Of a DNA stretch of 64,000 bases, positions 17,856 through 61,607 are shown piece after piece. The translations under genes and the position numbers were made by a program. The first letter of the stretch is position 1. Every line of letters begins with the position of its first letter. The stretch covers positions 32,020-96,019 of IMG/VR virus record IMGVR_UViG_3300038468_000170. The stretch is one strand, 5' to 3'. The notes beneath the pieces were generated by a model. The model had not been told where the DNA came from. It made no database searches and saw nothing but the letters and a program-made list of their open reading frames with translations. Source of the DNA: a virus.

Positions 17856-17887
17856 CTCCACCACGCCCCAGGAAAGGGGCGGTGGAG
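17856..17887 (+). terminator. Second strong hairpin
   Basis: A 12-13-bp GC-rich stem (left arm 17856-17869, right arm 17876-17887, one bulged A) with a 6-base loop. With the hairpin at 17798 it forms a tandem structure between convergent transcription units. Confidence 0.5.
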
Positions 17888-27423: not shown

Positions 27424-27726
27424 TCATTTTGGCTCCTTTTCCGGCGCTCTCTCGTGGTGTCGCAACGACTCCAACGTCTTCTGCATTTCCCGAAGAGCCC
27501 GTCCAGCGAGCTCGACAGCGGCGTCTCGTTCGGCGCGTAGTTTCTCTACTTCGCCTTTGAAATCGGGCGTCAGATCGGGGAACGTGAACACCTGATTGGG
27601 GCCTTCGTCAAGATACGCATCGAGCGCGTCCACGACGTCGTGCGCCTGTGCGTCTGTCATCACGGCCTTGAGCGTCTCGATCAGTTGCTCACGGGCCGTC
27701 TCGCCCCTGAAATACTGGTCGTTCAC
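27424..27726 (-). CDS. Hypothetical helical protein (full-length paralogue)
   Basis: 100 residues from a GTG at 27726 that overlaps the ParB-like stop (GTGA). The parts are NDQYFRGETAREQLIETL (1-20), an acidic middle ending PDLTPDFKGE, and a long helix with REMQKTLESLR and APEKEPK. A shortened copy lies at 26390-26539. It is charged and probably coiled-coil. Function unknown. Confidence 0.6.
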   Translation of the reverse strand: MNDQYFRGETAREQLIETLKAVMTDAQAHDVVDALDAYLDEGPNQVFTFPDLTPDFKGEVEKLRAERDAAVELAGRALREMQKTLESLRHHERAPEKEPK

Positions 27727-28580
27727 GACTTCTCCCGAACCTTCCTCCACTCCCCGGTTCGAATCTGCTTCAGTAGCGACGCAGGAACGTCGCTCCAGGC
27801 TTGGTCGATCCACGCCGCGATATCCGTAGCCACCGCGTCTTCGGCCTTCTTGCTGATGTGTCCGTTCCTCTGTCCGTTGACGATCTCGCGCGCCTTGCCC
27901 GCGTTCCCACGACGCTTCTTGCCCGGCGCCCGAGGGGCGTTCTCGACGAGCTCCGTGACCTTGCTCTTGGCTTCCTCCGGCTCGAGTTTCGAGAGCTTGT
28001 AGCCCTCGCTCGCGGTGATCTTGCCGGCCTCGACCGCGTTCCTCACCGCTGCCGGCGCATCGAGCAGCGACAGCAGGTTCTTCACCGAGGTCACACTGAT
28101 TCCGAACAGCACCGCGATCTCCGCCTCGTCCCGGCCGAGATCGAGGTAGCGCTGCGCCTTCTTCGCACGCCCGAGCGGCGTGTCGTCCTGGCGGTGCTCG
28201 TTCTCGCTGATAAGGATCCCCATCGCGCCGTGCGAATTCGTACGGCGGACCATCGCCGGGACCCTGATCGGCTCGAGACCTTTCTTCTTCAAGCGTCGGT
28301 TCGCCTCACGGGCGGCCTTCACGCGCTGCCTGCCGACGACCACCTCGATCTTGCCCGTCTCTTGGTTTCGGGCGACCGTGACAGGCTCGAGGACGCCCTG
28401 AGGCACGCCGTCAGGGGCGTGCAACATGTTCAAGACGAGCGACTCGCTCACCGGCAAGTGCACGCGCTCGTCGTAGAGCGGGGACTTCTCGTCCGTGACC
28501 AAGACGAGGTCATCAGGGTCGAACATGTAGGCGTCTCGTTTGCCCTTCGCATTGAGAGCGTCTCTGGATGCTTTCGGCAT
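27723..28580 (-). CDS. ParB-like nuclease/partition domain protein
   Basis: 285 residues from the ATG at 28580, preceded by tandem GAAAGGAAA ribosome-binding sequences. The N-terminal ParB/Srx-type domain has VVVGRQRVKAAREA (the G-x-R-R box equivalent) and ISENEHRQDDTPLGRA. A central HTH follows (AVLFGISVTSVKNLLSLL). The C-terminal ~90 residues are basic and unlike chromosomal ParB dimerisation domains. I see no ParA nearby, so it may be a stand-alone phage ParB-like DNA-binding or CTP-binding protein. A 22-bp inverted repeat lies just upstream. Confidence 0.8.
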   Translation of the reverse strand: MPKASRDALNAKGKRDAYMFDPDDLVLVTDEKSPLYDERVHLPVSESLVLNMLHAPDGVPQGVLEPVTVARNQETGKIEVVVGRQRVKAAREANRRLKKKGLEPIRVPAMVRRTNSHGAMGILISENEHRQDDTPLGRAKKAQRYLDLGRDEAEIAVLFGISVTSVKNLLSLLDAPAAVRNAVEAGKITASEGYKLSKLEPEEAKSKVTELVENAPRAPGKKRRGNAGKAREIVNGQRNGHISKKAEDAVATDIAAWIDQAWSDVPASLLKQIRTGEWRKVREKS

Positions 28581-39068: not shown

Positions 39069-40922
39069 ATGCAAGCTTTCGACACAGAAACTTTCCTAAT
39101 CGCGGACGGCAACCTCGCCCCTGATCTGGTTTGCGTTTCGTACGCCGGTCCGGATTACAGCGCCCGGCTGTATCACGCGATCGATGGGTCCCCGACGTTT
39201 CGTGCGATGGCTGACTGCGCCTTGGGTAACAACACTCCGGTGATCGGCGCGAACGTCGCCTACGACATGGGCGTCATGCTCGCGCACGATCCGTCGCTCG
39301 AGGATCGTATTTGGACGCTGTACGATCGTGGTCTCGTGCGTGACGTGATCATGCGCCAGAAGATGATCGATATCGCGATGGGCTGCTATGGCGGCTTCAG
39401 GCGTGGTGAGGACGGTAAGACGTACAAAATCGGGTACAGTCTGGCTGAGCTCGTAAAGCGACACCTCGGTCACGAGCTCGACAAAGGCGCGGACACCTGG
39501 CGCCTCAGGTACTCCGAGCTCTACGAAGTACCTTTGTACGAGTGGCCCAAGGAAGCACGTCAGTACGCTGAAGACGACGCAGTCGCGACGATGGGCGTCT
39601 ACCAGGTGCAAGAAGAGCACGCGGCGCTCCTTCTCGACGAGCCTGCACGGTGTCGCACGGCGTGGATGCTCCACCTCATGTCTTGCTATGGAATCAAGAC
39701 GGATCCGGAAGCCGTTCGGGCGTTCGTCGCAGTGACAGAGCGGAGTGTCGAGGAGGTCAAGGCGCTTCTCGAGCAACACGGGCTCGTGCGCGCAAGTGGC
39801 ACACGAGACACCAAGGCTGCGAAGGCTCGCATGGTGCAGGTTTGCCAAGAGAAAGGTTTGGAGATCGCATCGACCGATGGCGGGGACGTCGCGCTCGACG
39901 ACGCTACGTGCAAGGCGACCGGAGATCCGATCCTTTGCGCGTACGCGAACTTCTCGAGTCTTGCGAAGGTCGTCTCGACAGATTTGCCGATCCTCATGAA
40001 AGGTATCGACAAACCAATCCAGACGCGCTTCGAGCCGCTTCTCGAAACCGGGCGCACGTCATCGAGTAACCCCAACATCCAGAACATCAAACGCCTCGTT
40101 GGGATGCGTGAGTGCTTCCGTCCGCGCCCTGGGTACGTCTATGTCGACGCTGACTATGCGATGCTCGAACTTTGTACGTGGGCGCAGACTTGTCTTTGGG
40201 CCCTAGGACGCTCGAGGCTCGCGGAGGTTCTGAACGCCGGTCAGGATCCACATCTCGACTTCGCGGCCCAGATCCTCGGTATCACGTACGACGAAGCGAA
40301 GGCGCGACGCAAAGCTGGCGACAAGGAGGTCGAACAGCGCCGTCTAGTGGCCAAGGTTGGGAACTTTGGTTTTCCTGGTGGCCTCGGTGCGGACAGTTTC
40401 GTCGAATACGCCGCGAGCTCGTACAAGGTGAACCTGACTGTTGAGCAGGCCAAGGATCTGAAACGTTTCTGGTTAGCGTCGTGGCCGGAAGCTCGGGCAT
40501 ATTTCAATTGGATTGCGAGCAAAGAGGTGGACGGTAAGACGTCCCTTCAACGCTTCGTCGTAGGTTCCTGGCGTTCCGGCATGAGGTACACGGTCGCGTG
40601 CAACGACCCGTTCCAGAGTTTGGGCGCGACGGCCGCAACGTGGGCCGGGTACGACCTTGCTAGGGCTTGCTATCACGAACGAGACCACGTGCTTTTCGGC
40701 TCGAGGCCCGTCAATTTCATTCATGACCAGTACCTTGTCGAGGTACCTGATGACGAGCGTGCGCACGATCGTGCAATGGCCGTGGCGAGCATCATGGTCG
40801 CAGCCGCGAAGCGCGCAATCCCTGATGTGACACCGAAGGTCGAGCCGCTTCTGTGCAGGTACTGGAGCAAGGACGCAAAGGCCGTCTACAAGGATGGGAG
40901 GCTCGTTCCGTGGCCCTCGTAG
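39069..40922 (+). CDS. Family A DNA polymerase with 3'-5' exonuclease
   Basis: 617 residues, without a 5'-3' exonuclease domain, as in phages. Exonuclease motifs: FDTET, ANVAYDMGVM and YAEDDAVAT. Polymerase motifs: LLETGRTSSSNPNIQNI, motif A DADYAMLELCTWAQ, motif B RRLVAKVGNFGFPGG, and motif C FIHDQYLVEV. In most family A enzymes motif C is HDE, and here Gln replaces the Glu. It is the replicative polymerase of the element, beside the resolvase, helicases and prim-pol. The 3' end overlaps the resolvase start by 13 bases. Confidence 0.93.
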   Translation: MQAFDTETFLIADGNLAPDLVCVSYAGPDYSARLYHAIDGSPTFRAMADCALGNNTPVIGANVAYDMGVMLAHDPSLEDRIWTLYDRGLVRDVIMRQKMIDIAMGCYGGFRRGEDGKTYKIGYSLAELVKRHLGHELDKGADTWRLRYSELYEVPLYEWPKEARQYAEDDAVATMGVYQVQEEHAALLLDEPARCRTAWMLHLMSCYGIKTDPEAVRAFVAVTERSVEEVKALLEQHGLVRASGTRDTKAAKARMVQVCQEKGLEIASTDGGDVALDDATCKATGDPILCAYANFSSLAKVVSTDLPILMKGIDKPIQTRFEPLLETGRTSSSNPNIQNIKRLVGMRECFRPRPGYVYVDADYAMLELCTWAQTCLWALGRSRLAEVLNAGQDPHLDFAAQILGITYDEAKARRKAGDKEVEQRRLVAKVGNFGFPGGLGADSFVEYAASSYKVNLTVEQAKDLKRFWLASWPEARAYFNWIASKEVDGKTSLQRFVVGSWRSGMRYTVACNDPFQSLGATAATWAGYDLARACYHERDHVLFGSRPVNFIHDQYLVEVPDDERAHDRAMAVASIMVAAAKRAIPDVTPKVEPLLCRYWSKDAKAVYKDGRLVPWPS

Positions 40923-41368
40923 CGATCGACCCGGGCAAGACAACGGGTGTGGCGGTGTTCTTAGGTGACGTGCTGCACCTCGCCATGGTCTGTGACGAAG
41001 AGCAGTGCCTGATGCACATCGAGAACTACGCACCTGTTCGACAAGGAAAGCCCGCGGGAGACTGCATCATCGAGGTGCCCCAAGTTTACCCAGGCCAGCA
41101 ACAGAAGGGCGATCAGAACGACCTAATCAAGTTGGCTGTCATGGTCGGTCGATACGCCGATCGTGCAACGGCTTGTGGTTTTTGCATCAAGTTGGTCAAG
41201 CCGCGTGAGTGGAAGGGGCAGCTCCCTAAGGACGTGTGCTGGAAGCGTGTACGTGAGACGCTGACGTCTTTCGAGCTTACGAAACTCGCGAAGCTCCCAA
41301 AATCTCGTGCGCACAACATGCACGATGCGATCGGACTCGGAACGTGGTTCCAGAAAAGGTGGAGATAG
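40910..41368 (+). CDS. RuvC-like Holliday junction resolvase
   Basis: 152 residues from the GTG at 40910, with GGGAGG 8 bases upstream inside the polymerase gene. RNase H-fold acidic residues are visible in VAIDPGKTTGVAVF (Asp), CIIEVPQVYPGQQQKG (Glu) and NMHDAIGLGTW (Asp). It would cut branched DNA during replication or packaging. A start further upstream adds only a basic stretch that is antiparallel to the polymerase end. Confidence 0.85.
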   Translation: MALVAIDPGKTTGVAVFLGDVLHLAMVCDEEQCLMHIENYAPVRQGKPAGDCIIEVPQVYPGQQQKGDQNDLIKLAVMVGRYADRATACGFCIKLVKPREWKGQLPKDVCWKRVRETLTSFELTKLAKLPKSRAHNMHDAIGLGTWFQKRWR

Positions 41369-41391
41369 TGGCAACGAAAAAAAGAGGTGTC

Positions 41392-41607
41392 ATGACGCTG
41401 AAGGCGTGGTTCGAAAGCACGCTTCCACCAGGCATGACGAAGACGGCCTACGCCAAGTTCTTGGCGGAAAAGTCCGGTGGCAAGATCGGAATGTCGACGA
41501 TCCTGAACACGCTCAAGGGCCAGAGGCTCACCGGATACGCCAAAGGGCGTGCTTTGAGTGATTTGACGGGTGGCAAGGTTCCGCTCACGGAGATCGTGGA
41601 CACATGA
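41392..41607 (+). CDS. Small XRE/Cro-like HTH protein
   Basis: 71 residues from the ATG at 41392 (GAGG 4 bases upstream). A GTG at 41368 overlapping the previous TAG would give 79. Helices MTKTAYAKFLAEKSG, GMSTILNTLKGQ and the ending ALSDLTGGKVPLTEIVDT follow the Cro/C1-type phage repressor pattern, in which the final TGGKVPL is common. Its codon-level coupling with both neighbours argues against a classic immunity switch. It is a candidate binder of the 30-bp dyads at 42.2-46.9 kb. Confidence 0.6.
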   Translation: MTLKAWFESTLPPGMTKTAYAKFLAEKSGGKIGMSTILNTLKGQRLTGYAKGRALSDLTGGKVPLTEIVDT

Positions 41608-42197
41608 CTGAGTCAGTTGCCGTAGCAGACAGTGTTTGGGTGAAGCGCCCGCAAGACCTTGAGAGCAAGGAGGCACTCGCGGAGCTCTCCGCGTCTCTTC
41701 AGGATCTTCCGTGCGATGCTGTCACGTATCCGGGGATCTGCGATGCCCTGATCGACGTGAAGGCACGTGTGAAGAGTCTTACGGCGCAGCGTGAGACGGT
41801 GCTCGGGCCACTTCGGGAGGCCGAACGGGCGGTGCGAGAGTGGTTCCGAGCCCCGCTCGAGACGTACCAGACGATCGAAACGGTTCTCAAGGCCCGCGTG
41901 GCCGCCTACCAGGAGACGCTCCGTCAGGAGAAGCACGCGGCCATTGTCGCTGCGGGGCAGGCCCCTACGCCGTCGGCAATGGCCCAGTTGACGGCACTTG
42001 CCGTGCCCCCGACCCCTGCGGCCATCTCGTTTCGGAAGGTCTGGAAGGTCGAAATCACGGACCCGAATCTTGTGCCGCGGGAGTACCTGTTGATCGATAC
42101 GTCGGCGCTCCGGAAGGTTTGCCAGGCCACGGATGGCAAGGCTCAGATCCCGGGCGTTCGGTTCGTTCAGGAGCAGAGCGTGGCGGTTGGATCATGA
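41604..42197 (+). CDS. Conserved phage protein with coiled coil
   Basis: 197 residues, ATG overlapping the previous stop. Residues ~45-120 are a long helix (DALIDVKARVKSLTAQRETVL). The C-terminal KVWKVEITDPNLVPREYL...IPGVRFVQEQ pattern is shared by many phage proteins in replication or recombination regions, whose function is unknown to me. A dyad element begins 3 bases after the stop. Confidence 0.65.
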   Translation: MTESVAVADSVWVKRPQDLESKEALAELSASLQDLPCDAVTYPGICDALIDVKARVKSLTAQRETVLGPLREAERAVREWFRAPLETYQTIETVLKARVAAYQETLRQEKHAAIVAAGQAPTPSAMAQLTALAVPPTPAAISFRKVWKVEITDPNLVPREYLLIDTSALRKVCQATDGKAQIPGVRFVQEQSVAVGS

Positions 42198-42199
42198 AT

Positions 42200-42229
42200 C
42201 GCGGCATCGTAGGCTCCGCGTTGCCTTGG
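42200..42229 (-). repeat. 30-bp dyad element, copy A
   Basis: Read on the minus strand: CCAAGGCAA, then CGCGG-AGCCTACGATG-CCGCG. It begins 3 bases after the stop of 41604-42197 and faces it. The 5-bp inverted arms flank a TACGAT that resembles a -10 box. Two more copies lie at 44702 and 46851. Confidence 0.75.
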
Positions 42230-42320
42230 TCTGGAAAGCTGTACGTCTTTGCGTCTCTCGCAGAGGTTCCGGGGGCTCCCCGCGGCCTTGGGGCGTGCAG
42301 GCAGACGACGTGCTCGGGTC

Positions 42321-42503
42321 TCATCTGTACCCGACCTGTCTCGCGATCTTTCGAAGCTGCCTCTGGTTGCGCCCCCGCCCCGCGCGCGGCGGGTGGTTGG
42401 GGATTTCTATCCCACGAGAGAGCCGCTGGAACCGCCATGTGGCGTTCAGCATGGCCTCTTTGGTCATGATTTGCAGAAGCAAGAGTGAGCGTTGCGAAGC
42501 CAT
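42321..42503 (-). CDS. Small basic protein
   Basis: 60 residues. The ATG at 42503 shares its A with the upstream TGA (TGATG). The product is MASQRSLLLLQIMTKEAML followed by a basic C-terminus RAGRGRNQRQLRKIARQVGYR, which suggests nucleic-acid binding. A plus-strand frame (42194-42469) overlaps it. The coupling favours this one, but I cannot exclude the other. Confidence 0.45.
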   Translation of the reverse strand: MASQRSLLLLQIMTKEAMLNATWRFQRLSRGIEIPNHPPRAGRGRNQRQLRKIARQVGYR

Positions 42504-42784
42504 CAGTGGATCCCTTTCATGCGCCAAAGAATGAACGCTACAATCGCAGCGATCAGCAAGACCACCCATCGGTGCCGCCACGGAGGGCTCTCAGCCTCGT
42601 CGCCCTCGACGATCTCCGAGTAGTCGCACACCCAAACCCTCCCCGAGAGCATGGCGCGCTTGCCTGACTCCGTTTGCCCGAACACCTCAGCCTCGTGCGG
42701 TGTGAAAGGGCCAGCCTCGATCTCTTCGAGCTCGGGCGGGTCGGAGATCCCGCGGAATCTGAAGAGGTACCTGGACTTCTTCAC
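42503..42784 (-). CDS. Small protein with C-terminal transmembrane segment
   Basis: 93 residues from the GTG at 42784, overlapping the upstream stop (GTGA). Residues ~1-67 are polar (FRFRGISDPPELEEIEAGP). Then comes a Trp/Val/Leu/Ile/Ala transmembrane helix (~72-88) ending in WRMKGIH. No family is recognised. Confidence 0.6.
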   Translation of the reverse strand: MKKSRYLFRFRGISDPPELEEIEAGPFTPHEAEVFGQTESGKRAMLSGRVWVCDYSEIVEGDEAESPPWRHRWVVLLIAAIVAFILWRMKGIH

Positions 42785-43092
42785 GAGATCCCCACCTTCT
42801 GTTTGCCGAAGATGCGGTCGTAGCCGTCCCGATACGCCGGTGTCGTGACCTGCGCCGGGCCGCTTCTCTCGCCGCAGACGGACTCGAGTTTTCGCCAGTG
42901 TCCGCACTCGCAGCTCGAGTCACCGACGATTACGAGTTCCGATCCGGGTTGGATGGGTTTTCCGTCTTGCGCGAGTCGCACCAGAACGCGCTGGACTTCA
43001 CCGTTGCGTCGGCGAAGAGCGGCGTACACGCCGGGGGAGATTTCGGGGCCGATGGCGATCTCGTCTGGTGGTGCAGGTTTCTTCGGTGTCAC
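42781..43092 (-). CDS. Small hypothetical protein
   Basis: 103 residues. The start overlaps the upstream stop (ATGA). It has a beta-rich middle (QRVLVRLAQDGKPIQPGSELVIVG) and a CECGHW motif. No family is recognised. Confidence 0.6.
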   Translation of the reverse strand: MTPKKPAPPDEIAIGPEISPGVYAALRRRNGEVQRVLVRLAQDGKPIQPGSELVIVGDSSCECGHWRKLESVCGERSGPAQVTTPAYRDGYDRIFGKQKVGIS

Positions 43093-43439
43093 GGCGCGCC
43101 ACCATCGAGAGGCGGCGGCACGAACTCAGAGCAATCGCAACAGAAATTGCCGCCGTCTGGTCTCGGCCCAAACAGAACCATGCAGCCCGCGTTGTGCATG
43201 TGCCGAGGGTGACCGCAGTTTGCGCAAGACCACATCGGCACGTGGACCTTTGCGAAGCACTCGGGGCATAGCCCGATGCTGTTTTGCGAACGGAACGGGA
43301 ACCGGTCGCCACTGGCGTGAAGAACAACGGTTTGCAGACTTTCCTCACGTGAGATCAGTCTGCCGCATCCGTCGCATCGCTCTCGATCTTCGACGGCGTT
43401 TACGGCGCCGCAGTTGCGGCAGTGTCGCTCGTAGCTCAT
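43089..43439 (-). CDS. Multi-zinc-ribbon protein
   Basis: 116 residues with four Cys pairs: CRNCG, CDGCG, CPEC and CANCGHPRHMHNAGC, and a late CCDC. Three zinc sites are plausible. Phages often encode such ribbons, but no specific function follows. TGATG and ATGA overlaps join it to both neighbours. Confidence 0.7.
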   Translation of the reverse strand: MSYERHCRNCGAVNAVEDRERCDGCGRLISREESLQTVVLHASGDRFPFRSQNSIGLCPECFAKVHVPMWSCANCGHPRHMHNAGCMVLFGPRPDGGNFCCDCSEFVPPPLDGGAP

Positions 43440-43675
43440 CAGTTCGCCATTTTCTGAGACGATTTCTGCTTCGTCTGAAAGTAGGCTCGATCGTTCATCT
43501 GCCGGATCAGGTTCCGTTGTATGTTATTCTCTTCCTTTAGAGCTTCGATGAGAGCTTCGAGAGCCTTGACGTACGCGCGACGGCTCCGGTCAAGGGCGAC
43601 GGTTAACATGTATGCCAACTTGACACCGAGCATGGCGCTACAAAAGCAGGCGATATTGAGCAGGACGTTATGCAT
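43439..43675 (-). CDS. Small membrane protein with coiled coil
   Basis: 78 residues from the ATG at 43675 (TGATG with the upstream stop). A hydrophobic N-terminus (~4-27) is followed by a long charged helix (YVKALEALIEALKEENNIQRNLIRQMND). The layout resembles small spanin-like or antirepressor-associated membrane proteins, but no lysis neighbours support a spanin. Confidence 0.6.
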   Translation of the reverse strand: MHNVLLNIACFCSAMLGVKLAYMLTVALDRSRRAYVKALEALIEALKEENNIQRNLIRQMNDRAYFQTKQKSSQKMAN

Positions 43676-44004
43676 CACGGCGCGTGCGTCCCCTCGACCT
43701 CTCGCTCTTCGCGATCGGCCGTGCGCTTCTCGAGCCAGAGGAGCGCCGTCTCGAGGTGCGTGAGCGCGATGGCGTTTTCGCGGCACGAAAACTTGCCTCC
43801 CGCCGCCTTCTGGTAGAACTGGAGGCGGCCGATTGCTGCTTGCACGACGCCCTCGACGAAGGCGCCGTTCGGTTCCTTGCGGTCTGCACCGCGCCCGAGC
43901 GGGCCGTCTTGCCACTCGATACCGATGCCGGTACCGGTGGTTGAGCCGCCAGCGGGGTTACTGTTCTGATCGAGTACGTGTTTCTCTTCGAGTTTCTGTT
44001 TCAT
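43675..44004 (-). CDS. Phage protein with REnaLAlThLEeAllWL-type helix, possibly Acb2/Tad1-related
   Basis: 109 residues. The N-terminal ~40 residues are Gly/Asp-rich. Residues ~45-100 form a helical hairpin: NGAFVEGVVQAAIGRLQFYQ and CRENAIALTHLETALLWLEK, then RTADREEREVEGTH. The second helix is typical of a widespread phage family and resembles the helix in anti-CBASS cyclic-nucleotide sponges (Acb2/Tad1 hairpin). The relation is from memory of the pattern and needs a profile search. Confidence 0.55.
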   Translation of the reverse strand: MKQKLEEKHVLDQNSNPAGGSTTGTGIGIEWQDGPLGRGADRKEPNGAFVEGVVQAAIGRLQFYQKAAGGKFSCRENAIALTHLETALLWLEKRTADREEREVEGTHAP

Positions 44005-44020
44005 GGTTCGGTTCCTTTCA

Positions 44021-44509
44021 TCACCGAGACACCTCCGAGACCGCCGGCACCGAGAGCTTCCGTGCCGCCGCGATCACCGCCTCGATCGTGCGCTTGCGTC
44101 CTCGACCTCCTTCACGCTCGAGTTCTCGGACGAGCGCGCCGACGACGACTTGGGAATTGAGCAAACGCTGGTGCGCATCCTTGTCGAGCTCCGCGGCTTG
44201 GAGTTCTGATCGACGCGCCTCCCATGCGTTTGCGTCGCTCGCTCGAAACAGACGCGAGGTGAGAACTTCGTGCTGCCGTCCGGTATGCGGAGCCCGAACG
44301 AATGCGGACTCACCACGGAGGTGCCAACGCACGAACACGACCGGCACGCGACCGCGTTTCCCGCACGTCCACCAGAGCCAGGTACCGGGTTTCAGTAGCG
44401 AGACTACGTCTCCCAAAGGCCTCCTATGTTTCGACGGTTGAGGGACCGATGCTAGACCCGGGCAGCCGGCGCCGTCAAGAATCTTGTCAGACAACGTGAC
44501 GAGGGGCAT
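44021..44509 (-). CDS. Hypothetical protein
   Basis: 162 residues. The N-terminal ~80 residues look like a small beta barrel (PGTWLWWTCGKRGRVPVVFV). The C-terminal half is helical and charged with an Arg-rich patch. First gene of the minus operon 44509-42321. Its ATG lies only 13 bases from the divergent start at 44523, so the two promoters must overlap the neighbouring coding regions. Confidence 0.55.
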   Translation of the reverse strand: MPLVTLSDKILDGAGCPGLASVPQPSKHRRPLGDVVSLLKPGTWLWWTCGKRGRVPVVFVRWHLRGESAFVRAPHTGRQHEVLTSRLFRASDANAWEARRSELQAAELDKDAHQRLLNSQVVVGALVRELEREGGRGRKRTIEAVIAAARKLSVPAVSEVSR

Positions 44510-44522
44510 ACTGGAGGCCGGA

Positions 44523-44696
44523 ATGACTCAAGACGCCATCATCTATGCCCGAGTACCTCGTGAGCTACGCAAGGCGCTCGAACGCGAGCGGCAGCGAATG
44601 AGTCGCGCGTCGGGCGTCGAGGTGAAGACGAGCGCGGTCATCCGCTCGATCCTCGAACGAGCGTTGCGGAAGACGTCCCGTAGAGCGGTCGCATGA
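44523..44696 (+). CDS. Ribbon-helix-helix (CopG-like) DNA-binding protein
   Basis: 57 residues from the ATG at 44523 with GGAGG 7 bases upstream. The start at 44484 lacks an RBS. IIYARVPRELRKALERERQRM forms strand and helix 1, and TSAVIRSILERAL forms helix 2: the RHH plan. It is a likely dimeric repressor, placed at a divergent promoter. Dyad copy C begins 5 bases after its stop. Confidence 0.65.
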   Translation: MTQDAIIYARVPRELRKALERERQRMSRASGVEVKTSAVIRSILERALRKTSRRAVA

Positions 44697-44701
44697 GCTA
44701 T

Positions 44702-44731
44702 CCAAGGCAGCGCGAAGCCTACAATGTCGCG
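44702..44731 (+). repeat. 30-bp dyad element, copy C
   Basis: CCAAGGCAG, then CGCGA-AGCCTACAATG-TCGCG. Compared with copies A and B, both arms changed together (CGCGG/CCGCG to CGCGA/TCGCG), so pairing is kept. It lies in the only plus-strand position where a TACAAT -10 could drive a gene, the winged-helix gene at 44777. Confidence 0.75.
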
Positions 44732-44776
44732 ACGAAGGGCAGTGGCCGGATTTCGATTTCCAGCCGCGGAGGAACC

Positions 44777-45019
44777 ATGCGCGCCGCCGTGAAACGGAAT
44801 GAATTGGCGGAGTTCATCATCGACTACGTGCGGGGGCATCCCGGCGTGAGTGCGTACGCGGTGGCGCAGGCACACGAGGGGAGTTACGCGGCGACCTACC
44901 GCGCCGTCGATCGATTGGTGCGGGATGGGCGGTTGGTAGTGACCCTGCCGCCCGGTTTCTTCGCCGCTGGATCCCGACGATCTTATCGGTACAGGGTGAA
45001 CGAAGAAGAAGAGCAGTAA
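44777..45019 (+). CDS. Small winged-helix DNA-binding protein
   Basis: 80 residues from the ATG at 44777 with GCGGAGGAA upstream. An upstream in-frame start at 44693 would cross the dyad element. Helices FIIDYVRGHPGVSAYAVAQA and SYAATYRAVDRLVRDGRL followed by a hairpin LVVTLPPGF form the winged-helix plan. A regulator that might bind the dyad just upstream. Confidence 0.6.
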   Translation: MRAAVKRNELAEFIIDYVRGHPGVSAYAVAQAHEGSYAATYRAVDRLVRDGRLVVTLPPGFFAAGSRRSYRYRVNEEEEQ

Positions 45020-45057
45020 CGGCGTTACAAGCGTCACGCTCGGAAAGCGAAGACAGA

Positions 45058-45276
45058 ATGGCAAATCAACGATTGCTGCCTCGTAGTGGGTGCAAAGAAA
45101 TGGAGCGGCCAGCACGGACGCCGCTCACGTGGCCGGCATCCGCTGAGATTCAACGCCGAGCGTTGCTGCGACAACTTGAACGGCGACATCAATCCAGCGA
45201 TCGTCTGCGCATTATCGGACTACGTCCGGAGCCTCCGAAGAAGCGCCCGAGCGGGGCGGTCACCAGGAGGAAATAA
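45058..45276 (+). CDS. Doubtful small basic ORF
   Basis: 72 codons, Arg/Pro/Leu-rich, with a modest RBS (GAAGACAG). Another frame (45086-45658) crosses the same DNA and looks worse. There is no family motif. It is followed by three hairpins, so something on the plus strand may be transcribed here. Confidence 0.3.
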   Translation: MANQRLLPRSGCKEMERPARTPLTWPASAEIQRRALLRQLERRHQSSDRLRIIGLRPEPPKKRPSGAVTRRK

Positions 45277-45349
45277 CGAACAATTTCACGGCTACTCTCC
45301 CGCGTACGCCATTGAGTATTGCCCCGACCTTCGGCGTACGGTAGCCTGT

Positions 45350-45434
45350 CCCCTGTTCGTTCCGTTTGAGTTGAACAGGGGTCCAGACCTTCCCGGTCGG
45401 GACCTAGACCGGCCCCCGCTCCAACGGGGGTCGA
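45350..45434 (+). terminator. Three consecutive hairpins
   Basis: Stems: CCCCTGTTC/GAACAGGGG (45350-45381), CCGGTC/GACCGG (45393-45412) and CCCCCG/CGGGGG (45413-45430) followed by TCGAGTCGTTTT. They lie just before the 3' end of the minus gene at 45447, so they may stop transcription from both sides. Confidence 0.6.
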
Positions 45435-45446
45435 GTCGTTTTGGGG

Positions 45447-45641
45447 TTACTCGGTGGGTTTCGTGTGGACGATCTCCCATTTGCCGGGGGCAGGGTTCCT
45501 GGCACGTCCCTGGCGCTTCAAGGACCAGAGGATGGCTCGAATCCGATGGGTCGCGTCCGCGGCCTTCTCCTCGTTCGGGTAGACGAGTCTCGTCAGGTCA
45601 AGGATCGACATGCGTGGATGCGCTTCCAGAGCTTCGACCAC
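45447..45641 (-). CDS. Small winged-helix-like protein
   Basis: 64 residues from a GTG. Helices MSILDLTRLVYPN and ADATHRIRAILWSLKRQGRA lead into KWEIVHTKP, a plausible wing. No family is certain. Divergent from the gene at 45733. Confidence 0.5.
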   Translation of the reverse strand: MVEALEAHPRMSILDLTRLVYPNEEKAADATHRIRAILWSLKRQGRARNPAPGKWEIVHTKPTE

Positions 45642-45698
45642 TGCGTTGGTCTTGTTGACACGCAGAACGTATCGTGTGCGTCCATTTGCCGGTTTTTC

Positions 45699-45704
45699 TA
45701 GACT
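45699..45704 (+). promoter_or_regulatory. TAGACT box in divergent intergenic region
   Basis: TAGACT lies 28 bases before the ATG at 45733. TTGACA at 45655-45660 is upstream but too far for a standard spacer. The same hexamer occurs before 51487. Confidence 0.25.
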
Positions 45705-45732
45705 TCCAGAACCCGACGAAGAGGCTCTTCAC

Positions 45733-45903
45733 ATGATTTCCGCAACGTGGCTCGTCGATCTTGCCGAGCGAAAACTCGGTCCTGGTGCGATCATTCGCGT
45801 GACTGCCGAGGGGTGGGTTGCCGTACTCGGTGCCACGCGCGTTACGGCGAAGACGCGGGACACGTTGGTGTGGTTCCTCGAACAAATGCCAGATCGAAGT
45901 TGA
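45733..45903 (+). CDS. Small hypothetical protein
   Basis: 56 residues from the ATG at 45733 (GAAGAGG upstream). The product runs MISATWLVDLAERKLGPGA, a strand GWVAVLGATRV, and a helix TRDTLVWFLEQM. No family is recognised. Confidence 0.5.
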   Translation: MISATWLVDLAERKLGPGAIIRVTAEGWVAVLGATRVTAKTRDTLVWFLEQMPDRS

Positions 45904-45957
45904 CAACTTCCGGGCGGCGTCGCATCTTGGCGCGCGGACTCAGAAAGGAGAACTGTG

Positions 45958-46176
45958 ATGGCGAAGGTATCGGAGAAGACGAAAGAGCTGTGGGCGGGCT
46001 GGACGCGGGACGCGCTGAAAGGCTACTCGCCCCCCGACGACGCGAACAACGACGAGATCGTCGACGACATGGTCGAGATCTCGATCAAGTACGCCGACGA
46101 CATGCTCGAGGAGTACGAGGGGCGATTCGAGGGCGGAGACGGACGACGGCGGCGCAAGCCCGCCGACGATGACTGA
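45958..46176 (+). CDS. Small acidic protein
   Basis: 72 residues with AAAGGAGAA upstream of the ATG. Helical and strongly acidic (NNDEIVDDMVEISIKYADDMLEEY), ending in a basic patch GRRRRKP. No family is recognised. Confidence 0.6.
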   Translation: MAKVSEKTKELWAGWTRDALKGYSPPDDANNDEIVDDMVEISIKYADDMLEEYEGRFEGGDGRRRRKPADDD

Positions 46177-46190
46177 GAAAGGAAGGAAAG

Positions 46191-46403
46191 ATGGCAAAGA
46201 AGAAGATCCAGCGAGTCGTGGTGGACAAGACGTACCTCGAACTCCTCGAGAAGAAGGCGGAGCTGCTCGACGGCGTGTTCGTCGAGGGTGCCGTTTCGTT
46301 CTCCGTGGAGACCATCAAAGAGTACGCGCGAATCGAGAAAGCGTGGAACAAGGGTGACTTTCTCTGTACCGTCGAGCCGTACGAAGAGCCGAAGGAGAAG
46401 TGA
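46191..46403 (+). CDS. Small hypothetical protein
   Basis: 70 residues with GAAAGGAAAG upstream. The basic start KKKIQRVVVDKTYLELLEKK resembles the first helix of small DNA-binding proteins. The end is acidic (VEPYEEPKEK). No family is recognised. Confidence 0.6.
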   Translation: MAKKKIQRVVVDKTYLELLEKKAELLDGVFVEGAVSFSVETIKEYARIEKAWNKGDFLCTVEPYEEPKEK

Positions 46404-46406
46404 AGC

Positions 46407-46496
46407 GTGGCAACCAAGAAGAAGCCCAAGAAAGTCGTGCACCGCAAGTGCGGCGTGTGCGGCAAGCGCGGCCACAACCGGCGAAGTCACGGATGA
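46407..46496 (+). CDS. 29-residue zinc-knuckle peptide
   Basis: GTG at 46407 (RBS GGAG upstream inside the previous gene). The peptide is Lys/Arg-rich with CGVCGKRGHNRRSH, a C-x2-C-x4-H type zinc knuckle. Its TGA overlaps the next ATG (ATGA at 46493). Too short for usual gene callers, but the motif and coupling support it. Confidence 0.6.
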   Translation: MATKKKPKKVVHRKCGVCGKRGHNRRSHG

Positions 46497-46816
46497 CCCG
46501 GCGAACATCCCGGCGGTCCGAACGCACCACTCGAGGGGCCGAAGACCCTCGAGCGAAGGCGAAGAAGCTCATCGAGCTCGCCGTCGACAAGGAGACGCCG
46601 GAAAAAGAGGCGTTAAGCGCGGCGTGTAAGGCCGTCGACATCATCCACCGGTACGATCTACTCTCGAACCCCCTCGACGTCTTCGCCGAGAACAAGACGG
46701 TGAAGGCGGCGAAGAACGTCGTCGATACTCTCTCCGATCCGGGCCTGGTCGACAGCTTGAAGACGATCGGGGGGAGTTTGAGGGAGATCCGAGATCAGTT
46801 TTCGCGGCGTTCGTAA
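46493..46816 (+). CDS. DUF2786-like protein
   Basis: 107 residues from the ATG overlapping the knuckle peptide stop. KAKKLIELAVDKETPEKEALSAACKAVDIIHRYDLL follows the DUF2786 helical-hairpin pattern (KIrkLLaLA...EAaaAlakAqeLM.kY). The rest is helical. DUF2786 function is unknown. In many proteins it precedes a SprT-like domain, and a SprT-like gene lies convergent at 46889. Confidence 0.55.
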   Translation: MTRRTSRRSERTTRGAEDPRAKAKKLIELAVDKETPEKEALSAACKAVDIIHRYDLLSNPLDVFAENKTVKAAKNVVDTLSDPGLVDSLKTIGGSLREIRDQFSRRS

Positions 46817-46850
46817 GGTTCTGGTGGACTCTACTGGGTGGCTGGCCTCG

Positions 46851-46880
46851 CCAAGGCAGCGCGGAGCCTATGATGCCGCG
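46851..46880 (+). repeat. 30-bp dyad element, copy B
   Basis: CCAAGGCAG, then CGCGG-AGCCTATGATG-CCGCG. It lies in the 72-bp gap between the convergent genes ending at 46816 and 46889, with its TATGAT pointing into the 3' end of the SprT-like gene. Confidence 0.75.
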
Positions 46881-46888
46881 ACGATGTT

Positions 46889-47650
46889 CTACGTTGAGAC
46901 CTTTCTTGCAGCCTGTCGTTCGTAGTATCCGACCTTCTTCCGCCACTTCGTGAGCGCTCTCTGGGCTGCCTTCGCTCGCTTCTCGGCGCGGACGAGCATC
47001 TTAGCGGCGTGTTCGGCGCGCTTCTCGACGACTTTCGCCGTGAGTTCGGCGCGAGAAGGCTTCTCCGAGGGAGCCTTCGGGAACAGGTTGACCTCGCCAC
47101 GCGAGATTTTCTCCTTCAGCGCGGCGGTCGCGATCTGTCCCATGCCGTATGCGATGACTCCGCCGCTCGGGGGCGCATCGAGCGGCACATCGATATCCCA
47201 GAGCACTAGGCACGCCTTCCTGAACGTCAGCCGGAACCGCTCTCCGTGAGCGACGTCGCTCGGTACGGCGAGATGGCACATCTCGTGGACGAGCACCTCG
47301 AGCACCCGTTCGGGGGTCGCGTCGGGTCCGGCGGCGATGCGGAGTTTCCTCCGGACGGTGAACGCTGTCCCGCGCGTTCCGAGTTCGAGGCGATGGGCGA
47401 CCACGAGCTGGATCTTCCCGAGGTTCCCGATGAACGGCGGGAGCTTCCGGTATGCGGCAAACGCCTGGTCGAGGTCGACACCAGCGACGACGTGGCCGAG
47501 AGCCCGACGTCGGGCAACGTCGCGGCGCTGGGCAGGGCGGACGACGCACACGTAGCAGTCTGCGGGCTCCCAGGGGGACTCAGGGTCAGGTCGGTGAGCA
47601 CCGACGGACCGGCCGCAGTCGTTGCAGCGGAAGTCAGGGGCGTCGTTCAC
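46889..47650 (-). CDS. SprT-like zinc metalloprotease
   Basis: 253 residues from the GTG at 47650, overlapping the upstream stop (GTGA). It has an N-terminal zinc-ribbon pair CNDCGRS and CYVCVV, then the catalytic VLVHEMCHLAVPSDVAHGERF (HExxH plus a later His), as in SprT/Spartan-type proteases. The C-terminal ~75 residues form a long basic helix (RAEHAAKMLVRAEKRAKAAQRAL) that may bind DNA. Spartan proteins clear DNA-protein crosslinks, which would suit replication, though other roles are possible. Confidence 0.75.
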   Translation of the reverse strand: MNDAPDFRCNDCGRSVGAHRPDPESPWEPADCYVCVVRPAQRRDVARRRALGHVVAGVDLDQAFAAYRKLPPFIGNLGKIQLVVAHRLELGTRGTAFTVRRKLRIAAGPDATPERVLEVLVHEMCHLAVPSDVAHGERFRLTFRKACLVLWDIDVPLDAPPSGGVIAYGMGQIATAALKEKISRGEVNLFPKAPSEKPSRAELTAKVVEKRAEHAAKMLVRAEKRAKAAQRALTKWRKKVGYYERQAARKVST

Positions 47651-48036
47651 GGTTGCTTCTCCTGTGCCGCCACGAGCCCGAGCCGGAGCAGCCACGTGCT
47701 CAAGCCGAGCCCCTCTCGAGCAGCGGCAGCGTCGAGCGCGGCCTTCTGCTTCGTCGTGAGGCGTATGTTGATGCTCTCTTCCTTTGGTAACCGTATGTTT
47801 TCCTTCTTTCTCCTGGGAGATATTTCCGGGTGGAGCCTCAAGGCACGCTGCTCCAGCTCGTATATGGCAGCAGGTAGATCGTCGCGCCACTCGCTCGGCA
47901 GCCGATCGTTTTTGCTTGAGTTACACCTTCGACACGCCTGAAAAATGTTTTCGGGAATGTCGCGACCGCCTCGTTTACTGGGGATGAGATGTTCTGTTCC
48001 AAGGTTCTCGGTGTCACCACAGTACAGGCACGTCAT
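47647..48036 (-). CDS. HNH endonuclease fused to a ribbon-helix-helix domain
   Basis: 129 residues. HNH part (~1-45): CLYCG, TEHLIPSKRGG (His16), NIFQACRRCNSSKND, giving two Cys pairs for structural zinc and the H-N-N catalytic pattern. The C-terminal ~45 residues (ESINIRLTTKQKAALDAAAA...LSTWLLRLGL) form an RHH/Arc-like DNA-binding unit. It could be a homing-type or packaging nuclease. The RHH may set its target. Coupled at both ends. Confidence 0.8.
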   Translation of the reverse strand: MTCLYCGDTENLGTEHLIPSKRGGRDIPENIFQACRRCNSSKNDRLPSEWRDDLPAAIYELEQRALRLHPEISPRRKKENIRLPKEESINIRLTTKQKAALDAAAAREGLGLSTWLLRLGLVAAQEKQP

Positions 48037-48218
48037 CGCTTCTTCCTTCTTGCTTCAAGTACGGTGATGCCCTCGATTGCGGCAAGCCTTAACACTTCGG
48101 CGCGCGTGATACGCACCCCCATCTGCGACATGAACTTGGCGTGTGTGTCGAGCCGTTTCAAGAGCGGTGCGGGAAGCCGGATTGCCGTCTGGATCTGCTG
48201 GTCTTGCTTGGCGGTCAC
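48033..48218 (-). CDS. Ribbon-helix-helix protein
   Basis: 61 residues from the GTG at 48218 with GGAG upstream. QTAIRLPAPLLKRLDTHAKFM and RITRAEVLRLAAIEGITVL give the strand-helix-helix pattern of Arc/MetJ repressors. Overlaps the HNH start (ATGA). It may repress the HNH-protease operon. Confidence 0.65.
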   Translation of the reverse strand: MTAKQDQQIQTAIRLPAPLLKRLDTHAKFMSQMGVRITRAEVLRLAAIEGITVLEARRKKR

Positions 48219-48240
48219 AGTGTATCTCCATCGAATGGGC

Positions 48241-48639
48241 CTACTTTTGTACGCCGTTGGTTCTTTCGATTCCGAGTTCTTCGATACGCTTGCGCGCTTC
48301 TGCGAACCGATGTTGCGAGGAGGACGTGTACCCACCGTGGTCGGCGCACATGTCTCGTCCGATGACTGCGGTTCGCCAACACTGCGGGGCCGTGCACGGA
48401 GGAAGTGAATCGAGTAGTGCACGCACCGCAGCAGTGATCGCAGGGAGCTTTTTGTGGGCTGATTGCTCGGCATCGAGCTTCGGCATGAACGTGATCGCCC
48501 CAGAGAGTCGAAGCACGAGTCGGCACGCGAGGTCGGCGAAGGCGTCTTCGGGGTTATCCACGAGGTACGACTCGGGGGCTTCCCGGATGACGTCTCGGAG
48601 CCCGGCCGCGAGTTCGTCGAGCATTTCGTCGGGGGTCAT
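48241..48639 (-). CDS. Hypothetical protein with Cys-His motif
   Basis: 132 residues. The helical N-terminus (MLDELAAGLRDVIREA) is followed by CTAPQCWRT...CADHGG (C-x5-C and C-x2-H), a small zinc-binding motif also seen in the 78-residue gene at 19315. Coupled to the gene upstream by ATGA. No family is certain. Confidence 0.55.
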   Translation of the reverse strand: MTPDEMLDELAAGLRDVIREAPESYLVDNPEDAFADLACRLVLRLSGAITFMPKLDAEQSAHKKLPAITAAVRALLDSLPPCTAPQCWRTAVIGRDMCADHGGYTSSSQHRFAEARKRIEELGIERTNGVQK

Positions 48640-59138: not shown

Positions 59139-61607
59139 ATGAAAGCAATCCGTAATTTCTTGTGCATGATCGTGGCCGTCGTGGCCGCCTGCGCGCCCAT
59201 CGCGAGCGATAGCGACGGGGCGAAGATCCATACCGAGACGGCGCGCCAAAGGCTCACGCCCGTCTATCCGCTGAAGCGGGCTCCGGGCGCGCGCTACATC
59301 ACGGACCAGGGCGGGACGCCCTTCTTGGTGAACGCCTGGACCGAGCACACCATCGTCACGAACATCCCCCCGAGCGCGTACGGGCAGATCATGTCGACGC
59401 GCGCCGCGCAGGGCTTCAACGCCGTGCAGGTGCAAGTGCTCGTGAACAACTACATCCACAACCCGAGCGCGTGTACGGACGACGGGATCTGTCCGTTCAC
59501 GACAGGAGGCTCCCAGCCCCAGCCTGCCGACCTATCGACTCCGAACGAGGCGTATTTCGCGCGGCTAGACCAGGTGATCTCGGCGGCCGCCGCCTCGAAC
59601 GTCGTCGTCTTCCTCACTCCGCTCGATGAGGGCGGCTGGGCGGATCCGGGTCAGAACAACACTCTCCACGCGAACAGTGCAGGCGGCGCGGGACATACGA
59701 AGCTCTACGGGTACGGGCAATACCTCAGTAACCGCTACAAGAACTCCCCGAATATCGTCTGGCAATTCGGCAACGACTTTCAGAACTGGTGCTCCTCTTC
59801 GACCACGAATGGCCTCACGGACGACCAGCTCGTCCTTGAGATCGGAAACGGCATTCGGAGCGCGGACACGATCCTCCCGAAGCCCGCGACGATCGAGCTT
59901 GCGTACCTCATCTCGAGCACAATCGATGACACGGCGATCTGGGGACCATTCTCCGACTTCAACGCGGTCTACACGTACGCGCCGATCTACTCGCGCGTGC
60001 ACCACGACTACGGCGCGGATAGCCGGCCGAGCCTCATGATCGAGAGCTTCTATAATGGCGAAGGGAATCCTCCAGCGAACTGGACGACCGCCGCGCACGA
60101 CGCAAGGAAGGAGGCTTGGTGGTCGATACTCGGCGGGGCGGCGGGCACGTTCTTCGGGAACAACGGCGACTACGATCCGAGCCATTCTCCGTCCTTCGAC
60201 CCGGTCGCGGCGCTCACCGATCCGAGCGCCGCGGAGGTCGGCTACATGAGCGGCTTTTTCGCGGCGCTTCCGTGGTGGACGCTCGTCCCGGATCGCAACG
60301 CGAATACGATCGTGACGGCCGGCTTCTGCCCGAGCGGCACGACCTGCTACGACACCACGGAAGACGGCTGCGACAACGGATGCGCCTCATGCGTCTTCGC
60401 GTCGCACTCTGCCCAGGTGAACTACTACGCAACAACCGCCAGGACGAGCGACGGCGCGTACATCGTCTCGTACATGCCATCGCCGCGTACGATCACGGTC
60501 GACCTCACGAAGATGAGCGTCTCGCCCTTCCAAGCGCGCTGGTTCAATCCGGCGGCGAACACGTACACGACAATCGGGACCTTCACGAACGTCGGGAGCC
60601 AGCAATTCACTCCGCCAGCGGCGACGCCCGAGCAGACCGCAAACTGTAACGACAGCGATCATTCGAAGTGCGCCGACTGGGTGCTCATTCTTTCGCCGCT
60701 CCCGGGCGATGGCGGCACCGGGACGGGAGGAGCCCCGGGGACCGGCGGGGCGCCCGCGACGGGTGGAGTGACTTCGACCGGAGGCGCGCCGAGCACGGGT
60801 GGAGTGACTTCGACCGGAGGCGTCACGTCTACGGGCGGCGACACGTCGACTGGAGGGACAACGGGAACGGGTGGCGACACATCGACCGGAGGGACAAGCT
60901 CGACCGGAGGGACAAGCTCGACCGGAGGAACGACGAGCACCGGCGGTACGACGGGCACGGGCGGCTCGACGGGCGGCACGACGCCGATCTTGTTCGTACA
61001 GGAGAACAACGCCGTGCCGCAATCGTCGCCGACCAGCGTCGCGGTGAAGTACACGCTCGCGCAAGCGGCGGGAGACCTCGACGTCATCGTGGTCGGCTGG
61101 AACGATTCGACGAGGCACGTCTCGAGCGTCGTCGACACGCAAGGGAACCCGTACGCGCTCGCGGTAGGTCCGACGGTCGTGAGCGGCACGCTTTCGCAGT
61201 CGATCTACTACGCCCCGAACATCGTCGCCGCTGCCGCGAACGCAAACACCGTGACCGTCACGTGGAACGGAGGGGCAGCGTTTCCGGACATCCGGATCCT
61301 AGAGTACAGTGGCATAGCGCCCGTCGCTCCCGTCGACGTGACGAAGGCGGCGACAGGCACCGGCACGAACTCGAACAGTGGGAGCGTCACCACTATGAAC
61401 GGCCACGACCTCCTCTTCGCTGCGAACACGATCACGACCACGACGAACGGCCCCGGATCTGGCTACACGAAGCGCGTCATCACGTGGCCGGACGGCGACG
61501 TCGCCGAGGATCGCGTAGTCTCGGCGACGGGGAGCTACAGCGCGACGGCGCCGATGAGCTCCGGCAAGTGGATCATGCAGCTCGTAGCCTTCAAAGGTGT
61601 GAATTGA
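59139..61607 (+). CDS. Apiosidase-like (DUF4038) lipoprotein with Thr/Ser-Gly-Gly linker
   Basis: 822 residues. A lipoprotein signal peptide ends in VAAC (Cys18). Residues ~50-400 match the DUF4038/GH140-like barrel: YITDQGGTPFLVNAWTE, GFNAVQVQVL, LYGYGQYLSNRYKNSPNIVW. Residues ~430-515 resemble the C-terminal collagen-binding-like beta domain that follows such enzymes. Residues ~522-615 are TGG repeats, and the rest (~616-822) is a beta-rich domain. The linker is typical of Polyangiales secreted proteins. It is the clearest host-like gene of the window, perhaps cargo; a pectin- or glycan-degrading role fits the family. Confidence 0.75.
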   Translation: MKAIRNFLCMIVAVVAACAPIASDSDGAKIHTETARQRLTPVYPLKRAPGARYITDQGGTPFLVNAWTEHTIVTNIPPSAYGQIMSTRAAQGFNAVQVQVLVNNYIHNPSACTDDGICPFTTGGSQPQPADLSTPNEAYFARLDQVISAAAASNVVVFLTPLDEGGWADPGQNNTLHANSAGGAGHTKLYGYGQYLSNRYKNSPNIVWQFGNDFQNWCSSSTTNGLTDDQLVLEIGNGIRSADTILPKPATIELAYLISSTIDDTAIWGPFSDFNAVYTYAPIYSRVHHDYGADSRPSLMIESFYNGEGNPPANWTTAAHDARKEAWWSILGGAAGTFFGNNGDYDPSHSPSFDPVAALTDPSAAEVGYMSGFFAALPWWTLVPDRNANTIVTAGFCPSGTTCYDTTEDGCDNGCASCVFASHSAQVNYYATTARTSDGAYIVSYMPSPRTITVDLTKMSVSPFQARWFNPAANTYTTIGTFTNVGSQQFTPPAATPEQTANCNDSDHSKCADWVLILSPLPGDGGTGTGGAPGTGGAPATGGVTSTGGAPSTGGVTSTGGVTSTGGDTSTGGTTGTGGDTSTGGTSSTGGTSSTGGTTSTGGTTGTGGSTGGTTPILFVQENNAVPQSSPTSVAVKYTLAQAAGDLDVIVVGWNDSTRHVSSVVDTQGNPYALAVGPTVVSGTLSQSIYYAPNIVAAAANANTVTVTWNGGAAFPDIRILEYSGIAPVAPVDVTKAATGTGTNSNSGSVTTMNGHDLLFAANTITTTTNGPGSGYTKRVITWPDGDVAEDRVVSATGSYSATAPMSSGKWIMQLVAFKGVN

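What the first reader, a model, noticed from the sequence alone, without database searches (positions are those of the whole stretch)
42200..46880. Three copies of a 30-bp dyad element at gene ends, with compensatory arm changes
Seen: CCAAGGCAR, CGCGR-AGCCTAYRATG-YCGCG occurs at 42200-42229 (minus), 44702-44731 (plus) and 46851-46880 (plus), about 2.5 and 2.1 kb apart. In the second copy both arms change together (CGCGA/TCGCG), keeping the dyad. Each copy abuts a stop codon, and each centres on a TAYRAT box. Known: mycobacteriophage stoperators are dispersed repressor sites in short intergenic gaps. Inference: repressor-bound promoter/stoperator sites, possibly for the HTH (41392), RHH (44523) or winged-helix (44777) protein.
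Basis: partly seen in the sequence, partly recalled or inferred. Interest (0 to 1): 0.7.

Follow-up and report, generated by a model that had tools for sequence, protein, structure and literature searches.

The report
Three-copy 30-bp dyad in phage island
A phage genome carries three near-identical copies of a 30-base, partly mirror-symmetric sequence at the ends of gene groups in one small accessory region; it is real and found nowhere else searched, and it is probably a phage-specific control site that a regulator binds, or that folds as RNA, to mark where transcription units end.

Summary
CCAAGGCAR-CGCGR-AGCCTAYRATG-YCGCG occurs exactly three times (25/30 invariant; 0.17 matches to the 21-bp core expected by chance, none of 100 shuffles reached three) in a near-complete ~96-kb phage. 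The next-best site has 8 mismatches. The compensated 5-bp dyad is unlikely by chance (about 0.2-0.3% of random 30-mers).
No copy occurs in six related phage records, 2.9 million IMG/VR contigs, GTDB genomes or INPHARED phages. The copies sit in a 4.7-kb island of small genes. All are in sense with transcription leaving a divergent sigma-70-like promoter at 44449-44512. Copies 1 and 3 lie in convergent gaps, so 'promoter' is a poor reading; no -35 box exists at normal spacing.
The conserved HTH protein and the RHH protein (whose relatives keep a different promoter palindrome) occur in phages that lack the element. Only the winged-helix gene, 45 bp downstream of copy 2, is, like the element, unique to this phage.
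Best reading: a regulator-binding boundary site (stoperator-like roadblock, autoregulatory at copy 2). Close rival: a sense-strand RNA H-type pseudoknot (AGGC/GCCU plus CGCGR/YCGCG) that also explains the conserved left third. Membership in the mycobacteriophage stoperator class is not met. Function is untested.

The parts
42200..42229 (-). copy 1, CCAAGGCAACGCGGAGCCTACGATGCCGCG; in the convergent gap between the exonuclease-like gene (+, stop at 42197) and the leftward small-gene operon (last supported gene ends at 42503)
   Evidence: exact match; gene calls
44702..44731 (+). copy 2, CCAAGGCAGCGCGAAGCCTACAATGTCGCG; 5 nt after the RHH stop, 45 nt before the winged-helix ATG; both dyad arms changed (CGCGA/TCGCG)
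46851..46880 (+). copy 3, CCAAGGCAGCGCGGAGCCTATGATGCCGCG; in the 72-nt convergent gap between 46493-46816 (+) and the SprT-like gene 46889-47650 (-)
44711..44731 (+). 21-bp dyad core of copy 2: arms 44711-44715 and 44727-44731 (same in copies 1 and 3), 11-bp spacer
   Evidence: dyad statistics; pair counts
44705..44720 (+). second short dyad AGGC-N8-GCCT (44705-44708 with 44717-44720), which with the 5-bp dyad gives an H-type pseudoknot in the sense RNA
   Evidence: found in all three copies, sense strand only under normal loop limits; no covariation
44449..44512 (.). divergent sigma-70-like promoter pair of the island: leftward TTGACG-18-TAGCAT, rightward TTGTCA-17-CATACT
   Evidence: similar spacing and hexamers upstream of RHH relatives in L042 and L043
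44476..44486 (.). palindrome CAAGAATCTTG between the two -35 boxes; candidate operator of the RHH protein, a different sequence from the 30-bp element
   Evidence: single site in window; CAAGATTCTTG at the same place in L042, partly kept in L043
44523..44696 (+). 57-aa RHH-like gene; relatives in L042 (67%) and L043 (59%), which lack the element
   Evidence: no family hit and no significant fold match, so the RHH label stays a sequence-based guess
44777..45019 (+). 80-aa winged-helix-like gene downstream of copy 2; candidate ligand
   Evidence: weak PHROG 142 (Ren-like) E 0.0014; low-confidence model whose insignificant PDB matches are mostly winged helices; no relative in IMG/VR or INPHARED
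41392..41607 (+).
   Evidence: no Pfam or PHROG family
45410..45433 (+). intrinsic-terminator-like hairpin ending the RHH/winged-helix transcript (part of a structured stretch 45300-45450)

Best explanation
The 30-bp element is a phage-specific, protein-binding DNA control site that marks the ends of transcription units in this accessory island and works like a stoperator. Shown: three exact sites in one orientation relative to island transcription; a conserved 5-bp dyad with a compensated change; two sites in convergent gaps without an intrinsic terminator and one just upstream of a winged-helix gene; and both element and winged-helix gene unique to this phage among the collections searched. 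Inferred: the winged-helix protein binds it. At copy 2 this would limit its own expression (autoregulation inside the RHH-winged-helix transcript). At copies 1 and 3 the bound protein would act as a roadblock that keeps island transcripts from running antisense into the replication gene at 41604-42197 and the SprT-like gene at 46889-47650.
For: Three copies far above chance. Compensated dyad, 0.2-0.3% of random 30-mers. All copies are in sense with transcription from the promoter pair at 44449-44512. Copies 1 and 3 are in convergent gaps where no intrinsic terminator is found for the transcripts entering the gap. The winged-helix gene has no relative in IMG/VR, INPHARED or the fetched related phages, nor has the element. 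A tyrosine integrase and a ParB-like protein suggest a temperate or plasmid-like phase in which repression would be useful. Known stoperators likewise keep one orientation relative to transcription, and one site is proposed to serve repressor autoregulation (PMC6550527).
Against: Only three sites. No counterpart, even with another sequence, shows up as dispersed intergenic repeats in related phages. Arm centres are 16 bp apart (about 1.5 helical turns), unusual for a simple dimer. The fully conserved left third (CCAAGGCA) and most of the spacer are not explained by the dyad. The winged-helix assignment is weak (PHROG E 0.0014, pLDDT 56). The link to the winged-helix gene is one co-occurrence.
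Confidence: 0.36

Rival explanations
1. The element acts as RNA. On the sense strand, AGGC (4-7) pairs with GCCU (16-19) and CGCGR (10-14) with YCGCG (26-30), a 27-nt H-type pseudoknot with loops AR, A and AYRAUG. It could block 3'-to-5' decay, serve as a protein-binding or processing signal at 3' ends, and at copy 2 act as a translational operator 45 nt upstream of the winged-helix start, laid out like T4 gene 32.
For: It explains nearly all conserved bases, including the left third. The three uncompensated variable sites all fall in loops and the other two compensate. It forms within normal loop limits on the sense strand in all three copies and not on the antisense strand, and all copies are in sense. 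Summed stem energy is -18 to -20 kcal/mol before loop penalties, against -5 to -7 for nested folds. About 0.15% of genome 30-mers hold such a pseudoknot. The T4 gene 32 operator has a ~28-nt pseudoknot 5' of a >40-nt stretch with the RBS (PMC535899).
Against: Stem 1 shows no covariation, and about 5% of comparable hairpins in this record (16 of 319, three of them the copies themselves) have such a partner. The RNA reading of the dyad is not separable from the DNA reading. No Rfam match. No counterpart pseudoknot in sense at the same junctions in relatives.
Confidence: 0.29
2. The element is a recombination or cassette-junction scar: a short repeat carried along with exchanged small-gene modules and having no regulatory role.
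For: Two of the copies sit at clear synteny breaks: relatives diverge right after the exonuclease-like gene and after the RHH gene. The island is hypervariable. The copies are very similar while flanks are unrelated.
Against: The compensated arm change and variation confined to spacer or loop positions are not expected of a neutral scar. No copy lies at similar breaks elsewhere in the genome or in relatives.
Confidence: 0.17
3. Phage promoter: TAYRAT is a -10 box and CCAAGGCA an activator box, with the dyad an operator over the -10.
For: TACGAT, TACAAT and TATGAT match TATAAT at its strongest positions, and copy 2 is well placed for the winged-helix gene.
Against: No -35 at 15-18 bp; not reported by the promoter scan, which finds the island's promoter elsewhere. 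Copies 1 and 3 would only make antisense RNA into convergent genes. No sigma factor or RNA polymerase gene among the proteins searched.
Confidence: 0.1
4. Dispersed centromere (parS-like) bound by the phage's ParB-like protein at 27723-28580.
For: The phage encodes a ParB-like protein and the sites are dyads.
Against: The ParB-like protein is 77% identical over the part held in a related phage (L012 record) that lacks the element. The sites are 14-19 kb from the gene. No ParA was recognised among the proteins searched.
Confidence: 0.04

Closest known systems
Stoperators of cluster A mycobacteriophages (L5, Bxb1, Trixie)
   Same: Dispersed phage-specific sites, one orientation relative to transcription, one near the putative regulator gene, temperate-type phage with an integrase
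   Different: Up to 30 sites of a 13-bp asymmetric core spread over the genome, with recognisable counterparts in relatives (PMC6550527; PMC9283540); here three 30-bp, partly symmetric sites in 4.7 kb and none in relatives
T4/RB69 gene 32 translational operator
   Same: ~28-nt 5' pseudoknot followed by >40 nt and the RBS (PMC535899), matching copy 2 in layout: 27-nt putative pseudoknot, 45 nt, start codon
   Different: Single site in one leader; copies 1 and 3 here lie in convergent gaps with no start codon to control; no SSB link
ToxI antitoxin RNA and the phage PhiTE pseudo-ToxI repeats (type III toxin-antitoxin)
   Same: Short H-type pseudoknot RNA units encoded by a phage in intergenic DNA (PMC3475682; PMC5086642)
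   Different: ToxI and pseudo-ToxI are tandem 36-nt repeats, and in type III systems a toxin gene follows after a terminator; here dispersed single 30-nt units and no tandem array
N15/F-type dispersed partition sites
   Same: Dyads in a phage with a ParB-like protein
   Different: Known to me from general knowledge only; the ParB-like protein is conserved in a related phage without the element

Membership tests
Mycobacteriophage-type stoperators | many (tens of) copies across the genome | tested here: not met
   three copies in the whole 96-kb record, next best 8 mismatches
Mycobacteriophage-type stoperators | short asymmetric ~13-bp core | tested here: not met
   30-bp element, 25 of 30 invariant, with a 5-bp dyad
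Mycobacteriophage-type stoperators | one orientation relative to transcription | tested here: met
   all three in sense with transcription leaving 44449-44512; only three sites, so weak
Mycobacteriophage-type stoperators | related phages carry counterpart sites | tested here: not met
   none in six related records; no dispersed intergenic repeat family in their place
Mycobacteriophage-type stoperators | bound by the immunity repressor and terminates elongation | not testable with these tools
   needs gel shift and a read-through assay
Sigma-70-type promoter | -35 and -10 hexamers at 16-18 bp | tested here: not met
   no TTGACA-like hexamer upstream of TAYRAT; not reported by the scan
Sigma-70-type promoter | genes in sense downstream | tested here: not met
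   true only for copy 2; copies 1 and 3 face convergent genes
Intrinsic terminator | GC-rich hairpin with short loop followed by a U run | tested here: not met
   11-nt loop, no U run; not reported by the scan
H-type RNA pseudoknot element | two interleaved helices with loops that can span the grooves | tested here: met
   S1 4 bp, S2 5 bp, loops 2/1/6 nt in all three copies, sense strand; this shows complementarity, not that the fold forms
H-type RNA pseudoknot element | covariation in both helices | tested here: inconclusive
   one compensated pair in S2, none in S1; three sequences only
Type III antitoxin (ToxI-like) | tandem repeat array followed by terminator and toxin gene | tested here: not met
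   copies 2.5 and 2.1 kb apart, singly placed
parS-type centromere | site kept with its ParB | tested here: not met
   ParB-like protein 77% identical in a related phage without the element

The most novel reading that the evidence does not exclude
The element is a new class of dispersed, phage-encoded 27-30-nt RNA pseudoknot at mRNA ends, acting as a trans-acting decoy or binding site for a host or phage RNA-binding protein (in the spirit of pseudo-ToxI), or as a combined 3'-end guard and translational operator.
Probability: 0.1. Interest if true: 0.7.

Novelty: new member of a known kind. Interest (0 to 1): 0.36.

Why it matters
If the site is a roadblock operator, this phage offers a compact three-site, one-regulator system for testing how a phage isolates an accessory gene island from the replication genes around it. 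If the pseudoknot reading is right, it would be a dispersed phage RNA module of a kind not matched in Rfam, with a ready test by structure probing. Either way it shows that a striking phage repeat can be confined to one genome among relatives with 63-88% identical polymerases.

Tried and rejected
Coding origin: in all sense frames and the antisense frames examined, the differences include non-synonymous changes, and one sense frame has a stop (sequences, read by hand); rejected. Fourth or degenerate copy: none. Relatives of the element: one 21-bp match in another viral contig (L004/G001) is single, with unrelated flanks, and judged a chance match. Matches to the left or middle part show no dyad in tabulated hits; two genome-contig matches to the relaxed pattern were not examined further. 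Nested RNA hairpin: weak folds, -5 to -7 kcal/mol. Rfam: only the phage's tmRNA above threshold. Invertible-segment idea (copies 1 and 2 are inverted): no recombinase was recognised in the island, untested further. Fold searches for the two small regulators gave no significant match.
Full report
OBSERVATION. The three copies are exactly where stated. The window lies in a 96,019-bp virus record. Positions 2 and 95795 of that record start a 205-bp near-identical overlap, and a tyrosine-integrase ORF runs across it. The record is therefore probably a near-complete, circularly permuted genome of about 95.8 kb (inference). Over the whole record the 30-mer has three matches with 0 mismatches, then nothing until 8 mismatches. 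The 21-bp core with up to 3 mismatches is expected 0.17 times in the window. Twenty-five of 30 columns are invariant. The five variable columns are all transitions: 9, 21 and 22 vary alone; 14 and 26 vary together as G-C to A-T in copy 2. A simulation drawing genome 30-mers and giving them the same substitution pattern yields a conserved dyad of at least 5 bp with a compensatory change in 0.16-0.29% of cases. The dyad is therefore probably real, although with three sequences a column shuffle cannot show it.

SURROUNDINGS. The element lies in an island of small genes between replication genes (DNA polymerase A 39069-40922, resolvase-like 40910-41368, exonuclease-like 41604-42197) and a SprT-like gene (46889-47650). 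The only promoter-like sites in 41000-48500 are a divergent pair at 44449-44512 (2 found against 1.2 expected by shuffle). Similar hexamers and spacing are kept upstream of RHH relatives in two other phages. All three copies are in sense with transcription leaving that pair. Copy 1 is downstream of the leftward genes (last supported gene ends at 42503). Copy 2 is 5 nt after the RHH stop and 45 nt before the winged-helix start. Copy 3 is 34 nt after the 46493-46816 gene. Copies 1 and 3 are in convergent gaps with no terminator-like site for the incoming island transcript. The RHH/winged-helix transcript has its own terminator at 45410-45433 in a strongly folded stretch (z = -3.2).

RELATIVES. 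DNA polymerase retrieves seven related loci at 63-88% identity. Six of their records were searched whole without a single match to the core; the seventh, a 7.4-kb contig (L011), has none either. Dispersed repeats in five of these records look like paralogous or low-complexity coding repeats rather than an equivalent element. The element is absent from IMG/VR (the one hit is judged chance), from GTDB genomes in the form searched and from INPHARED. The 41392 protein and the RHH protein both occur in phages without the element, and the RHH promoter has its own palindrome. The winged-helix gene alone shares the element's restriction to this phage.

MECHANISM. A promoter is unlikely: no -35 box, and two of three copies face convergent genes. 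An intrinsic terminator is unlikely: 11-nt loop and no U run. Two readings remain close. (a) DNA: a regulator, most likely the winged-helix protein, binds the dyad, limits its own expression at copy 2 and blocks read-through at the convergent boundaries. (b) RNA: the sense strand can form an H-type pseudoknot using AGGC/GCCU and CGCGR/YCGCG with loops of 2, 1 and 6 nt. That model pairs the otherwise unexplained left third, puts every uncompensated change in a loop, and works within normal loop limits only on the strand that is transcribed. Its first stem, however, has no covariation and about a 5% chance of arising beside such a hairpin. I rank (a) slightly above (b) because operators near a local regulator are the commoner kind; this ranking is a judgement.

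COMPARISON. The element works like a stoperator under (a) but fails membership on copy number, core length and symmetry, and presence in relatives (PMC6550527). Under (b) copy 2 is laid out like the T4 gene 32 operator (PMC535899), and the unit resembles ToxI-type pseudoknots in kind (PMC3475682; PMC5086642) but is not in tandem.

VERDICT. A real, compact, phage-specific repeat element, probably a boundary control site; function unproven; moderate interest.

Noticed in passing
17880-18254 (-): Phage-borne tmRNA (RF00023, 50.4 bits) missed by ARAGORN; the tag reads ANDNAIDPSVRVAA-stop by hand. It lies about 1.7 kb from a tyrosine integrase (19977-21068, -).
   Followed up: partly
63776-64000 and record position 1 (L006:1-205): The record's ends overlap by 205 bp with a few mismatches, inside a second tyrosine-integrase ORF; the record looks circularly permuted and near-complete.
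   Followed up: partly
L006:1405-5300 (several copies); window 62010 and 63096: Repeated ~60-nt modules encoding a mini-ORF like V/MKHPRxRSRADRSTREV, ending in a TGA next to the next gene start. The MKHGC.. version also appears as a 22-nt repeat in related phage G005.
   Followed up: partly
45300-45450 (+): Strongly structured RNA (several hairpins, z = -3.2) ending in a terminator, downstream of the winged-helix gene; no significant Rfam match.
   Followed up: partly
43675-44004 (-): Small gene with a sub-threshold match to the Acb2/Tad1 hairpin domain (Pfam E 2.3e-4), kept in related phages at 56-79%; possible anti-CBASS/Thoeris sponge.
   Followed up: no
44476-44486: Palindrome CAAGAATCTTG between the -35 boxes of the divergent promoter, kept in one relative (L042) and partly in another; candidate RHH operator.
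   Followed up: partly
27723-28580 (-): ParB-like partition protein in a phage that also has two tyrosine integrases.
   Followed up: no
59139-61607 (+): 822-aa apiosidase-like / collagen-binding-2 protein carried by the phage.
   Followed up: no
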